From assembly GCF_000716445.1 (NCBI RefSeq), contig NZ_JNWK01000019.1:43119-107118 (forward strand): a stretch of 64,000 bases of DNA, read 5' to 3'. A program made the position numbers and the translations under genes. Shown here in pieces: positions 30,767 through 56,458 of the stretch; position 1 is the stretch's first letter, and every line of letters starts with the position of its first letter. The DNA comes from Streptomyces wedmorensis. Its GTDB lineage: Bacteria > Actinomycetota > Actinomycetes > Streptomycetales > Streptomycetaceae. The notes under the pieces are model-generated. The model searched no databases. It was not told the origin of the DNA and worked only from the letters and a program-made list of their open reading frames with translations.

Positions 30767-30809
30767 CGTGTGGGCAATCGTTCCGCAGGGCGGAACGGGT
30801 GGGCACACG
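30767..30809. repeat. REP-like palindromic element, copy 1
   Basis: Layout: outer arms CGTGTG/CACACG, a 6 x 6 mismatch GGCAAT opposite GGTGGG, inner arms CGTTCCGC/GCGGAACG, loop AGG. The same layout recurs at 56253-56297 and 56415-56458 with paired changes in the arms. It lies between the ADH gene and a convergent CoA-transferase gene, where it could also terminate transcription in both directions. Confidence 0.85.
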
Positions 30810-30863
30810 CCCCGTTGCCGGTTGCCAGTCCCGGCCCGTTCCGCCCGTACGGCCCGCCCCCCG

Positions 30864-32162
30864 TCAGGCCCCGAGCCACTCCGGCGCATCCGCCCCCGCG
30901 AGGCCCGGCGGCCGTGACCACCCCGCAGCCCCGCCCTCGTAGGACACCGGCGACAACGCGTACCGCAGACGCCCCAACGGCCCCTCGGACTCGCCGAGAT
31001 ACCGCCCCGCCTCATACCGCGGCAGCCCGTGGGACAGCCAGTGACCGGTCTGGGCGAGGGCCAGGCGGACGAGCCGGGTGCCGCCCTCCGAGGCCTGCTC
31101 CGTCAGCGCCCGCAGCACCGCCGCCGCCAGCAGATAACCCGTCCCGTGGTCCAGCGCCTGCGCCGGCAGCGCCCCCGGTTCCTCCGCCGACCCCTCCACG
31201 GCGGCGATCCCCGTCGCGACCTGCACCAGGGAGTCGAAGCCGCGCCGCCCGGCCCACGGCCCGTAGTCGCCCCAGGCCGACAGCCGGGCGGTCACGAGGC
31301 CCGGCCGGTCCAGGTCGAAGCGGTCGAGCGCGCCCGGACGGTAGCCGGTGACCAACACGTCGGCGGAGTCCAGGAGTTCGTCGAAGGTGCGCCGGTCGGA
31401 CGGCCGGTCCAGATCGAGCGCGGCCGTCCGCTTGCCGACGTCCGTGTCCGCGTGCTGGTCCGGCAGTTCGGGGTTGTCCGGCGGGTCGATCCGCAGCACG
31501 TCCGCGCCGAGCAACGCGAGGGTCCGGGTGGCGACGGGCCCGGCGATGACCCGGGTCAGGTCGAGGATCCGCAGCGGCCCCGTGCGGCGCCGGGGCGGGG
31601 CGTCGTCGAGCCGCTCCCGGGTCAGCAGCGGCCGCGCCGCCACCTCCCGGCCCTGTTCGCTCGCGGCCCACTCGCCGGGCGTGCGCAGGGCGACGGCCAG
31701 GCCCCCGGCCGCGTACACCGCCGCCTCGACCTCGACGGCCTTGCGCTCGCCGATCGCCGCCGCGACGGCCTCGACCGAGTCGGCCGCGTTCAGCGCGGCG
31801 AGCAACGCCGCTTTGTGGTGCGGGTAGTTGGCGTGGGTGCGGACCCAGCCGTCGGCCGCCCGCCAGAACCGTGACAGGGGCGCGAAGTTCACCGGCGTCC
31901 GCCCGTCGATCCGCAGATGGCGCTCACTGACGAAGGCGGTGGCGACGGCCCCGTCGTCGACCCGCACCGGCCCCGGAAGGCCCTCGTGCTCCACCGCGGC
32001 GAGCGCGCAGACCGCGACCGCGGCCCGGGCCAGGTCCATCACCGGCAGGCGCGCGGGCAGCAGCCCGGACACCCCGCCGTACTCCACCCGGTCGACGAGG
32101 GCGGGATCGCCGCCCAGGGCCGACCACAGCAACTCCGTACCCGTGCGTACTCCGTTGTCCAT
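30864..32162 (-). CDS. Class III (CaiB/BaiF) CoA-transferase
   Basis: A 432-residue protein. The family marks are LRILDLTRVIAGPVATRTLA and LLGADVLRIDPPDNPELPD, with the catalytic Asp expected in QALDHGTGYLLAAAVLRAL. The segment DVLVTGYRPGALDRFDLDRP is also typical. The N-terminal 190 residues are less conserved but family-like, so this is probably a long version rather than a fusion. The CoA substrate is unknown and no pathway genes are adjacent. The start is ATG 32162, with the palindrome TGGCACT-G-AGTGCCA 10 nt upstream. Confidence 0.92.
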   Translation of the reverse strand: MDNGVRTGTELLWSALGGDPALVDRVEYGGVSGLLPARLPVMDLARAAVAVCALAAVEHEGLPGPVRVDDGAVATAFVSERHLRIDGRTPVNFAPLSRFWRAADGWVRTHANYPHHKAALLAALNAADSVEAVAAAIGERKAVEVEAAVYAAGGLAVALRTPGEWAASEQGREVAARPLLTRERLDDAPPRRRTGPLRILDLTRVIAGPVATRTLALLGADVLRIDPPDNPELPDQHADTDVGKRTAALDLDRPSDRRTFDELLDSADVLVTGYRPGALDRFDLDRPGLVTARLSAWGDYGPWAGRRGFDSLVQVATGIAAVEGSAEEPGALPAQALDHGTGYLLAAAVLRALTEQASEGGTRLVRLALAQTGHWLSHGLPRYEAGRYLGESEGPLGRLRYALSPVSYEGGAAGWSRPPGLAGADAPEWLGA

Positions 32163-32172
32163 GACCGCACTA

Positions 32173-32187
32173 TGGCACTGAGTGCCA
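32173..32187. promoter_or_regulatory. Palindromic operator candidate before the CoA-transferase gene
   Basis: TGGCACT-G-AGTGCCA is a perfect 15-nt inverted repeat with a central G, 10 nt upstream of the CoA-transferase ATG. It could be an operator for a TetR-type repressor acting in trans, since no regulator gene is adjacent. Confidence 0.6.
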
Positions 32188-32192
32188 CGCAA

Positions 32193-32226
32193 AGGGCCCC
32201 GGTGTGGCACAGCACACCGGGGCCCT
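32193..32226 (-). terminator. Hairpin terminator between the protease and CoA-transferase genes
   Basis: Arms AGGGCCCCGGTGTG and CACACCGGGGCCCT (14 nt, perfect) with a 6-nt loop. It lies just upstream of the CoA-transferase promoter region and 21 nt downstream of the S8 protease stop side at 32247 when that gene is read on the minus strand. It therefore most likely ends the protease transcript. Confidence 0.8.
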
Positions 32227-32246
32227 CCGTCACCTGACCTCCGCGA

Positions 32247-54984: not shown

Positions 54985-55621
54985 CCGACCGATCCGAGTC
55001 CTGCTGGTCGACGACCACCAGGTCGTCCGCCGAGGCCTGCGCACCTTCCTGGAGGTGCAGGACGACATAGAGGTGGTGGGGGAGGCCTCCGACGGCGCCG
55101 AAGGCGTCGCACGCGCCGAGGAGCTCCGCCCCGACGTCGTCCTCATGGACGTGAAGATGCCCGGCACGGACGGCATCGAGGCGCTCAGACGGCTCCGTGA
55201 GCACGCCAACCCCGCCAGGGTCCTCGTCGTCACCAGCTTCACGGAGCAGCGCACCGTCGTTCCCGCGCTCCGCGCCGGAGCCTGCGGCTACGTATACAAG
55301 GACATCGACCCCGACGCCCTGGCCGCCGCGATCCGCTCCGTCCACGCCGGGCACGTCCTCCTCCAGCCCGAGGTCGCCGGCGCGCTCCTCGCCCAGGACG
55401 ACTCACCGGGGGGTACGGGCCGGGGCACCACCCTCACCGAGCGGGAGCGCGAGGTCCTCGGCCTGATCGCCGACGGCCGCTCCAACCGCGAGATCGCCCG
55501 CGCCCTCGTCCTCTCCGAGAAGACCGTCAAGACGCACGTCTCGAACATCCTCATGAAGCTCGACCTGGCGGACCGCACCCAGGCCGCCCTCTGGGCCGTA
55601 CGCCACGGCCTCACCGACTGA
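54977..55621 (+). CDS. LuxR/NarL family response regulator
   Basis: A 214-residue regulator. The receiver domain has the acidic pair VDDHQVVRRG (12-13), the phospho-accepting Asp58 in VVLMDVKMPGTDG and Lys in VYKDIDPD. The LuxR-type HTH (about 145-210) reads LTEREREVLGLIADGRSNRE and LSEKTVKTHVSNIL. It starts at GTG 54977 (GGAGG 7 nt upstream) and overlaps the kinase gene by 8 nt. Confidence 0.96.
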   Translation: MADRPIRVLLVDDHQVVRRGLRTFLEVQDDIEVVGEASDGAEGVARAEELRPDVVLMDVKMPGTDGIEALRRLREHANPARVLVVTSFTEQRTVVPALRAGACGYVYKDIDPDALAAAIRSVHAGHVLLQPEVAGALLAQDDSPGGTGRGTTLTEREREVLGLIADGRSNREIARALVLSEKTVKTHVSNILMKLDLADRTQAALWAVRHGLTD

Positions 55622-55774
55622 CGCGCCCCCCTCATGCGCCGGGCGCACGACCGTTCAGTACTTCATACCGTCGTGTGTATATCCCCCGTTCGGCGCAACC
55701 CGGCGGGGGATCAGGCGTTCTCCAGAGCGTGCTGCGGCGGACCTGCCGCAGCGATGACCAGGAGGATGTACCAA

Positions 55775-56017
55775 GTGAAGAACCTCAAGAAGGCCGCTGC
55801 CCTCACCATGGTCGCCGGTGGCATCGTCGCCGCCGGTGCCGGTGTCGCCTCCGCCCACGGCGCCGAGGCCTCGGGCAAGGCCCTCAACTCGCCGGGCGTC
55901 GCCTCCGGCAACCTGGTGCAGGTCCCGGTCCACGTCCCCGTGAACGTCTCCGGCAACACGGTCAACGTGATCGGCCTGCTCAACCCCGCCTTCGGCAACA
56001 CCGCCCTCAACAACTAA
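55775..56017 (+). CDS. chpE: Short chaplin without cysteines (ChpE type)
   Basis: An 80-residue secreted surface-active protein of aerial hyphae. The signal peptide includes VKNLKKAAALTMVAGGIVAA and is followed by an ASA cleavage site near residue 27. One chaplin domain follows: SPGVASGNLVQVPVHVPVNV then SGNTVNVIGLLNPAFGNTA. Most chaplins have two conserved Cys; here the positions read Ser and Ala, as in ChpE. GTG 55775 is used (GGAGG 9 nt upstream). It is the next gene after the two-component pair. Confidence 0.95.
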   Translation: MKNLKKAAALTMVAGGIVAAGAGVASAHGAEASGKALNSPGVASGNLVQVPVHVPVNVSGNTVNVIGLLNPAFGNTALNN

Positions 56018-56083
56018 CCCCCGGCCCCCTCCCCCCACTGCGAGCTGCGCCCGCCCACCCCGTTGTGGGCCCGCGCCCCGCCC

Positions 56084-56297
56084 GTTGTGGGCATTCGTTC
56101 CACTGTGGCGGTGCCCACCCGCACCCCCCGGCCCCGCCCGTTGTGGGCAGTCGTTCCGCTGGGGCGGTGCCCACCCGCACCCCCCGGCCCCGCCTCGTTG
56201 TGGGCAGTCGTTCCGCTGGGGCGGTGCCCACCCGCAACCCCCGGCCCCGCCTCGTTGTGGGCATTCGTTCCGCTGGGGCGGAACGGGTGGGCACAAC
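56084..56297. repeat. Four-copy 56-57-bp tandem repeat downstream of the chaplin
   Basis: Units begin GTTGTGGGCA at 56084, 56140, 56197 and 56254 (a partial one at 56062). The first three end with GGCGGTGCCCACCCGCA, so each can form the hairpin GTGGGCA/TGCCCAC. The fourth ends with the complete REP-like palindrome. Units differ at a few positions only. Confidence 0.93.
56253..56297. repeat. REP-like palindromic element, copy 2
   Basis: Outer arms CGTTGTG/CACAACG, internal mismatch GGCATT opposite GGTGGG, inner arms CGTTCCGC/GCGGAACG, loop TGGG. It has the same layout as copies at 30767 and 56415. The outer arms carry an extra T-A pair, a compensatory difference. Confidence 0.9.
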
Positions 56298-56414
56298 GGA
56301 CGGCGCCCCTTGCCGGGCCCAGGCTTCCACGCCTGAACCCGCACCCGATGCTCGGCGCGCAACTCGGTGCGGGTCAGGGCGCAGGGGGCGGGGGCGCCGC
56401 CAAGCGCGCCGTCC

Positions 56415-56458
56415 CGTGTGCCCACCCGTCCCGCCCCAGCGGGACGATTGCCCACACG
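56415..56458. repeat. REP-like palindromic element, copy 3 (opposite orientation)
   Basis: Outer arms CGTGTG/CACACG and inner arms CGTCCCGC/GCGGGACG, with the C-G pair replacing T-A of copies 1 and 2. The internal loop is CCCACC opposite ATTGCC, the reverse-strand view of the same mismatch. Loop CCCA. Confidence 0.9.

What the first reader, a model, noticed from the sequence alone, without database searches (positions are those of the whole stretch)
30767..56458. REP-like palindromic element family with compensatory arm changes
Three full copies (30767-30809, 56253-56297, 56415-56458) share one architecture: outer stem, a conserved 6 x 6 internal mismatch, inner stem and a 3-4-nt loop. Outer arms CGTGTG/CACACG change to CGTTGTG/CACAACG, and inner CGTTCCGC/GCGGAACG changes to CGTCCCGC/GCGGGACG, always on both sides. 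Covariation with a conserved mismatch means that structure, in DNA or RNA, is kept. This resembles REP/BIME elements moved by RAYT transposases or a bidirectional terminator family, but I do not know a description for Streptomyces.
Basis: seen in the sequence. Interest (0 to 1): 0.75.

Follow-up and report, generated by a model that had tools for sequence, protein, structure and literature searches.

The report
Streptomyces-wide mobile palindromic repeat family
The three palindromes belong to a family of short hairpin-forming repeats, found so far almost only in Streptomyces, that appear to have spread to many gene ends (and occasionally into genes) and keep their fold, but have no recognised enzyme that moves them.

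Summary
The window holds two copies that form one composite (56253-56459) and one solo hybrid copy (30766-30810). A covariance model from these three finds 94 copies in the host genome, copies in 82 of 199 sampled Streptomyces genomes, and none in 113 other genera among 296 sampled genomes of the class. The double changes in the window are mostly two recurring end types (L, R) of an L-core-R unit, but in a genus-wide subset 9 of 17 pairs change on both sides and one shows all four Watson-Crick types, while unpaired Gs stay about 99% conserved. Copies favour convergent 3' ends and avoid divergent gaps. In 9 of 13 convergent loci some relative keeps the genes adjacent, and no relative held or measured there has the element. 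Seven of 69 loci lie inside ORFs, four with Pfam domains on both sides. No Y1/RAYT transposase in the host, no T-run, no Rfam match. Best reading: a non-autonomous REP/BIME-like mobile palindrome, not a RAYT-type REP, possibly kept as a U-less bidirectional 3'-end hairpin. Mobiliser unknown.

The parts
30766..30810 (+). Solo full copy, hybrid type (outer CCGTGTG../CACACGC, inner CGTTCCGC/GCGGAACG), between convergent ADH and CoA-transferase family III genes
   Evidence: 71.7 bits to model R1, one of its three seeds; fold; neighbours; orthologous gap ~12 nt or gene overlap in G015, G004, G162
56253..56298 (+). R-type palindrome (CGTTGTG..CGTTCCGC..GCGGAACG..CACAACG), one end of the composite unit
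   Evidence: 75.3 bits, model seed; 8 identical copies among the 94
56299..56413 (-). Core of the composite (115 nt here; 114 in 12 of 25 pairs): GACGGCGC..ACCCGCACC-variable loop-GGTGCGGGTT..GGGCGCCGTC
   Evidence: alignment of 25 paired units; pair table
56414..56459 (-). L-type palindrome (CCGTGTG..CGTCCCGC..GCGGGACG..CACACGG), other end of the composite unit
   Evidence: 77.6 bits, model seed; 21 identical copies among the 94
56060..56252 (+). Tandem R-side half-units (period 57; GTGGGCA..TGCCCAC hairpins) between the chaplin gene 3' end and the R palindrome
   Evidence: Tandem Repeats Finder 56070-56281, 3.7 copies; motif scan; similar units outside R at other loci
56460..56525 (-). L-side short half-units (CCGTGTGGGCCTTCGCCCACCG type)
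   Evidence: (56464-56498, period 16); end coordinate approximate

Best explanation
A non-autonomous, REP/BIME-like mobile palindrome family of Streptomyces. The unit is a 45-46-nt imperfect hairpin (outer stem; GG x GG; CA/TG; NT x GG; inner stem; loop nearly always with GGG). In this host it is often an L-core-R composite of about 206 bp with the two ends in opposite orientation, flanked by half-units. Shown: dispersal, absence at orthologous sites, two-sided covariation, conserved unpaired bases, 3'-end location, in-frame copies inside genes. Inferred: (1) an unidentified enzyme recognises the folded single strand (conserved mismatch plus GTGGGCA) and copies it to new sites; (2) copies survive mainly downstream of genes, where the hairpin acts on both strands as a U-less 3'-end (termination, processing or stability) element and can replace the ancestral terminator hairpin.
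For: 94 copies in 69 loci; 25 loci paired, members on opposite strands in 25 of 25, one L- and one R-type end in 19, one end unclassified in 5, R/R in 1. Genus-wide subset: pairing 97.8%, 9 of 17 pairs with two-sided change, 0 of 500 shuffles as high, slid controls 24-44% paired. Unpaired GG positions 99-100% conserved. Own genome, 41 classifiable intergenic loci: conv 21, tandem 18, div 2 against background gaps of 60 nt or more of 49/201/113, p = 1.2e-7 for convergent, 1.7e-4 for divergent depletion. Other genomes, 34 intergenic loci: 16/17/1 against 9/80/31, p = 6e-7 and 0.003. Orthologous convergent gaps without the element: 296 vs ~12 nt or overlap, 154 vs ~10, ~31 and 153, 454 vs ~17-76, 560 vs ~45; model R1 finds no copy at E up to 0.1 in the held loci of these sites. 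Relatives carry strong hairpins at three places where the host has the element: chaplin locus (5 relatives inspected), L086 (3), L132 (1). In-frame copies with domains on both sides in 4 of 7 proteins.
Against: No transposition, excision or target-site duplication was seen, and the exact insertion boundary is blurred by the arrays. No mobilising gene was found: Y1_Tnp is absent from the host, and no transposase is among the 25 commonest of 173 families in 102 neighbouring proteins. 0 of 263 strand ends have a T-run. 3'-end location could be mere tolerance. Hairpin replacement is clear at only 3 of 8 loci inspected; at L093 one relative has no real hairpin (-7 kcal/mol) and the host's own first 80 nt behind the chaplin stop also fold (-24). 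At L082 G162 has 153 nt of other sequence, so intergenic turnover is not only this family. Within the host alone the number of pairs with two-sided change does not exceed shuffles (395 of 500).
Confidence: 0.6

Rival explanations
1. Purely selfish or neutral repeat. Copies are tolerated at 3' ends because promoters and genes are purged, and pairing is kept only because the mobilising enzyme needs the fold; there is no host function.
For: Depletion at divergent gaps; patchy, widely varying copy number across the genus; identical copies (21 L copies; 12 with the same 45-nt core in G089); copies inside genes.
Against: Strong hairpins of relatives are missing and the element is in their place at three loci. 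That is few loci and is compatible with chance turnover.
Confidence: 0.3
2. Genuine RAYT/REP system whose transposase was lost from the host but acts elsewhere in the genus.
For: REP-like anatomy and BIME-like dimers. Y1_Tnp occurs in 66 of 199 genomes and co-occurs weakly with the element: 34 of 82 carriers vs 32 of 117 non-carriers, Fisher p = 0.047, no phylogenetic correction.
Against: 17 of 23 genomes with at least 15 counted copies lack Y1_Tnp. No unpaired terminal tag. I did not look at the flanks of the Y1 genes of carriers; only element neighbours in the host were scanned.
Confidence: 0.1
3. Duplex-DNA protein site (nucleoid or gyrase type) in which the direct repeat GTGGGCA in both arms, not the hairpin, is recognised.
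For: GTGGG is 97-100% conserved per base in both arms and recurs in half-units without full pairing.
Against: Two-sided covariation at 9 of 17 pairs, including all four Watson-Crick types at one pair, is not expected for a duplex site.
Confidence: 0.1
4. Local duplication or chance GC-rich palindromes.
For: The 57-nt tandem array in the window.
Against: 123 genome matches vs 2 for the reversed-pattern control; 82 of 199 genomes.
Confidence: 0.01

Closest known systems
GTAG REP / BIME elements mobilised by RAYTs (PMC3733652: abstract and passages seen; BIME naming recalled)
   Same: Short extragenic imperfect palindromes in high copy, often paired in opposite orientation with two subtypes per dimer, between convergent ORFs or downstream of genes
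   Different: No terminal unpaired GTAG tag; no Y1 transposase in host; in actinomycetes; longer (45-46 nt) with conserved GG x GG internal loop
CGTC REPs, including Rickettsia palindromic elements RPE-4/RPE-6 and Neisseria dRS3 (PMC3733652: abstract and passages seen)
   Same: No dedicated transposase; dimers in opposite orientation, in several families heterodimers; that paper's abstract reports REPs inside genes in several species, many in replication and genome-repair genes (here two UvrD/PD-(D/E)XK proteins)
   Different: No unpaired CGTC tag (the CGTC of L-type copies is paired and varies); 8-9-bp-stem families reported from five other phyla; the words Streptomyces and Actinobacteria do not occur in its main text
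U-lacking hairpin 3' ends and bidirectional 3' ends of Streptomyces clavuligerus (PMC8269248: passages seen)
   Same: GC hairpins without U-tract; both-strand 3' ends
   Different: 'palindrom' and 'repetitive' do not occur in its main text; no repeat family in the passages seen
MITEs (recalled)
   Same: The composite has inverted ends, no evident ORF and is dispersed
   Different: No target-site duplication seen; each end is itself a hairpin; no parent transposon found

Membership tests
RAYT-associated REP | Unpaired terminal GTAG/GTRG tag | tested here: not met
   Outer arms pair to the end and vary; a GTGG exists only inside, at positions 5-8
RAYT-associated REP | Y1 (PF01797) REP-associated transposase in the genome | tested here: not met
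   0 in host; 17 of 23 genomes with at least 15 counted copies lack it; weak co-occurrence overall (p = 0.047)
BIME | Two palindrome subtypes in opposite orientation around a conserved spacer | tested here: met
   25 of 69 loci paired, opposite strands in 25 of 25, L plus R in 19; spacer 114-121 nt in 18 and 12-68 nt in 7
CGTC REP | Unpaired terminal CGTC/TGTC/CCTC tag | tested here: not met
Rickettsia-type palindromic element (by function) | In-frame copies inside protein-coding genes | tested here: met
   7 of 69 loci in ORFs; 4 with Pfam domains both sides; relatives without a copy at the acyl-CoA DH and CobB sites
Intrinsic (Rho-independent) terminator | GC hairpin followed by U-tract | tested here: not met
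   Hairpin yes; 0 of 263 strand ends with 4 or more T in 8 nt
Bidirectional 3'-end element | Transcript 3' ends on both strands at the hairpin | not testable with these tools
   Needs Term-seq
MITE | Terminal inverted repeats plus target-site duplication, parent transposon | tested here: inconclusive
   Inverted L/R ends; no target-site duplication by eye in the flanks; no parent found among host neighbours
Rfam RNA family | Match to a curated model | tested here: not met
   whole window, gathering; 56000-56660, E up to 1

The most novel reading that the evidence does not exclude
A mobile palindrome family, so far seen in Streptomyces and one close genus, that spreads without a RAYT through an undescribed single-strand-recognising enzyme. 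It works as a transplantable two-way 3'-end cassette that replaces ancestral terminators, and also donates in-frame linker peptides (for example AVGNRPAGRDGWAQP) to proteins.
Probability: 0.35. Interest if true: 0.78.

Novelty: new variant of a known kind. Interest (0 to 1): 0.6.

Why it matters
Streptomyces gene 3' ends are poorly understood, and the REP survey consulted here does not mention Streptomyces or Actinobacteria in its main text (PMC3733652). If the reading is right, a mobile hairpin family is rewriting transcript ends across the antibiotic-producing genus (here at a chaplin gene), inserts peptides into helicase-nucleases and metabolic enzymes, and points to a mobilising enzyme still to be found. 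It may also break assemblies: 21 of 69 loci run into a contig end before the next gene.

Tried and rejected
Local duplication: rejected by genome and genus counts. RAYT origin: tested with PF01797 in host and genus and not supported, though a weak uncorrected co-occurrence remains and the flanks of Y1 genes were not examined. Element-neighbour transposase: 102 neighbouring proteins (long ones cut to 600 aa; loci inside ORFs left out) scanned against Pfam; only the 25 commonest of 173 families are visible, none a transposase. Known RNA: no Rfam match. Plasmid or phage carriage: no match to the composite. Element strings in papers: 62 papers held at least one of four 10-12-letter strings; 20 were listed; the only listed Streptomyces paper has the string in tRNA primers (PMC9262613, passage seen); 42 were not listed. 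A second string search gave one unrelated paper. Word searches listed no title or abstract that describes this family; several returned more papers than were listed. A G-quadruplex reading (four conserved GGG runs) was considered but would need a first loop of about 13 nt and competes with a -22 to -30 kcal/mol hairpin; not pursued. Orientation against the upstream gene in tandem pairs, counted by eye for solo copies (17 opposite of 25), is not clear. A first blastn of the coding insertions failed on gap settings and was replaced by MAFFT alignments of four of the six genes (L085 and L097 were not aligned).
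Full report
Observation. Both strands of each fold much better than dinucleotide shuffles (z -4.4 to -7.2, 0 of 200). The '6 x 6 mismatch' is two 2x2 internal loops around a C-G/A-T helix. The 5'-arm motif is far above chance in the window (11 vs 1.06); the 3'-arm motif less so under 3 mismatches (3 vs 0.67, reached by 3 of 100 shuffles). In the genome the 5'-arm motif has 70 + 53 matches vs 2 + 0 for the reversed pattern.

Genome-wide. Model R1 (built from the three copies only) gives 106 rows at E up to 1; 94 have E at most 7.1e-7 and the other 12 lie at 0.0075-0.64. 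Only 150 of 1435 first-look candidates were scored, so this is a lower bound. The 94 were recovered from fetched stretches and form 69 loci. The commonest sequences are one L-type form (21 identical) and several R-type forms (10, 8, 4, 3 identical). In 25 loci two copies sit within 400 nt, on opposite strands in 25 of 25. By the typing, 19 pairs are one L plus one R, five have one unclassified end (L098, L099, L119, L131, L133) and one is R/R (L090). The spacer is 114-121 nt in 18 pairs and 12-68 nt in seven. Hence window 56253-56459 is one composite (R+ core L-), and 30766-30810 is a solo hybrid.

Half-units. Outside R lie half-units of about 57 nt; outside L lie CCGTGTGGGCCTKCGCCCACCG-like units. 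Together they fill much of the convergent gaps.

Structure. In the host, 94.7% of cells pair on 48 distinct rows, against 86.2% in shuffles and 24-49% in slid controls; cells with two-sided change (69 vs 25.9) and covariation score exceed all 500 shuffles, but the number of pairs with two-sided change (6) does not (395 of 500), so within one genome the evidence is largely the two end types. In 110 copies (67 distinct rows, five of them weak matches with E above 1e-9) from 90 loci outside the host, 97.8% pair and 9 of 17 pairs change on both sides (0 of 500 shuffles). One pair has U-A 38, C-G 18, G-C 9, A-U 2; partner slides give 24-44%. Those 90 loci are a chosen subset: high-scoring and exact-pattern hits plus the stretches. 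Some named genomes seem to be the same as numbered ones (equal contig lengths, e.g. L296 and G093). Unpaired G8 and G9 and the Gs opposite are 99-100% conserved over 106 distinct copies. Conserved unpaired bases inside a covarying stem argue for recognition of a folded strand.

Distribution. 82 of 199 Streptomyces genomes have a match at E 1e-5 (at most 31 candidates scored per genome). Of 296 genomes across the class, 11 match, all in the window's genus, 0 in the 113 other genera. Of the 80 loci listed from named genomes, 79 are Streptomyces and one is Streptantibioticus rubrisoli, same family.

Location. Genes were called with my own codon-usage script, not a standard caller. Of 69 host loci: convergent 21, tandem 18, divergent 2, inside an ORF 7, contig end 21 (17 next to a 3' end, 4 next to a 5' end). 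Background gaps of 60 nt or more in the same stretches: 49/201/113. Fisher p = 1.2e-7 for convergent enrichment and 1.7e-4 for divergent depletion. In 38 loci of eight other genomes, picked from the top of the list: 16 convergent, 17 tandem, 1 divergent, 4 inside ORFs, against 9/80/31; p = 6e-7 and 0.003.

Absence at orthologous sites. The coding ends of 13 convergent host loci were searched in G004, G162 and G015. For 9 (the window copy, L082, L086, L093, L099, L124, L127, L129, L132) at least one relative keeps the two genes close together. For L091, L098, L108 and L125 the flanks were not found side by side. Gaps read: window copy 296 nt vs ~12 (G015) or gene overlap (G004, G162); L082 154 vs ~10 (G015), ~31 (G004) and 153 nt of other sequence (G162); L093 454 vs ~17/48/76; L086 79 vs 58/66/105; L132 560 vs ~45 (G015); L124 359 vs ~95 (G004); L127 319 vs ~95 (G015) and ~202 (G004). 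For L099 and L129 I have only hit coordinates (about 2 nt in G015 and 41 nt in G004). Other relatives of L099, L124, L127, L129 and L132 were not read. Model R1 at E up to 0.1 finds no copy in the held loci of these sites, nor in the twelve same-genus loci of the chaplin region.

Replacement of hairpins. The gene before the composite is a chaplin (PF03777). Five inspected relatives (of the twelve same-genus hits) have a strong hairpin soon after its stop, -24 to -35 kcal/mol, with a T-run of three or more in G004, G006 and G009. The host has the array and composite instead; its own first 80 nt also fold (-24 kcal/mol) through half-units. At L086, where the host has a degenerate copy, three relatives have a long GC hairpin (-38 to -46). 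At L132, G015 has one. At L093 one relative has no real hairpin (-7) and two have irregular folds (-23); L124 in G004 folds at -32 and L127 in G015 at -24, both less regular; at the window copy and L082 the gaps of the relatives are mostly too short to judge. So replacement is clear at 3 of 8 loci inspected: suggestive, not proof.

In-gene copies. Seven host loci are inside ORFs. In four the Pfam hits lie on both sides of the copy in one open frame: a UvrD/PD-(D/E)XK protein (copy at aa 829-844), a second such protein (409-425), a CobB/CobQ-type protein (249-265, between CbiA and GATase_3) and an acyl-CoA dehydrogenase (152-167). The acyl-CoA dehydrogenase is a net 36 nt longer than in G015, G004 and G006; G162 and G098 differ in other ways. 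At the CobB site G015 has an inverted degenerate copy (38.1 bits, E 1e-6), G009 a different repeat (GGCGTTTGAGGACGAGG) and G098 perhaps a half copy by eye; the other six relatives aligned show none. In the first UvrD-type gene G004 has a weak match (21.8 bits, E 0.013); similarity in G162 and G015 is by eye only. Three further in-ORF copies in G093 and one in G180 encode nearly the same peptide, AVGNRPAGRDGWAQP-like. These resemble Rickettsia palindromic elements; that they are translated is inferred.

Mechanism. Shown: dispersal, site absence in relatives, conserved fold, location. Inferred: a trans-acting enzyme. RAYT is unlikely: no PF01797 in the host; 66 of 199 genomes have it, 34 of 82 carriers vs 32 of 117 non-carriers (p = 0.047, no correction for relatedness), and 17 of 23 genomes with at least 15 counted copies lack it. 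No T-run follows either strand (0 of 263 ends), so the hairpin would be of the U-lacking type reported in S. clavuligerus (PMC8269248, passages seen).

Known families. PMC3733652 (abstract and passages) sorts REPs by unpaired terminal GTAG or CGTC tags, describes dimers in opposite orientation, convergent location and in-gene copies, notes that CGTC REPs lack a dedicated transposase, and does not contain the words Streptomyces or Actinobacteria in its main text. The present family shares the organisation but has neither tag. PMC4681348 (passages) speaks of REP elements of E. coli in the passages I saw. My nine paper searches listed no description of this family; they cover open-licence PMC papers only and several lists were cut.

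Noticed in passing
window 4204-4343 (-): Cobalamin riboswitch (Rfam RF00174, 41.6 bits) upstream of the minus-strand gene 3194-4168.
   Followed up: no
window 30617-30765: A separate array of short GCGTGGA/GCGCGGA units (CCGCGTGGATCCCCGCGTGGAACCTCC..) sits between the ADH gene stop and the solo palindrome; origin unknown.
   Followed up: no
L203 (G009 CobB gene); L144 (G005): Other Streptomyces repeats (GTCCGGCGTTTGAGGACGA-like) occur at a gene 3' end in G005 and inside the CobB linker of G009, so several mobile hairpin families may coexist.
   Followed up: partly
L160-L177 (G089): In G089 the palindrome is the 5' part of a larger conserved module of roughly 100 nt or more with CCCCGGGGCGAAGCCCCGG..CGGGAAGGGGCGGG.
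   Followed up: partly
contigs C6, C7, C8, C31, C32, C36, C44, C45, C48, C50, C52, C55, C79, C87, C97, C104, C107, C108, C109 of G000: These 19 contigs end within about 200 nt of a copy, suggesting that the repeats break assembly and that 94 is an undercount.
   Followed up: no
alignment of all copies: Four GGG runs (GTGGGC, loop GGG, ACGGG, TGGGC) are nearly invariant although partly unpaired; a quadruplex alternative was not tested.
   Followed up: no
window 55766-56017 (+): Short chaplin gene (PF03777) whose ancestral 3' hairpin appears replaced by the repeat array.
   Followed up: partly
L296/G093, L309/G006, L321/G162: Equal contig lengths suggest that G093 is Streptomyces sp. WAC 01529, G006 is Streptomyces sp. 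CB03234 and G162 is Streptomyces sp. CB02009.
   Followed up: no
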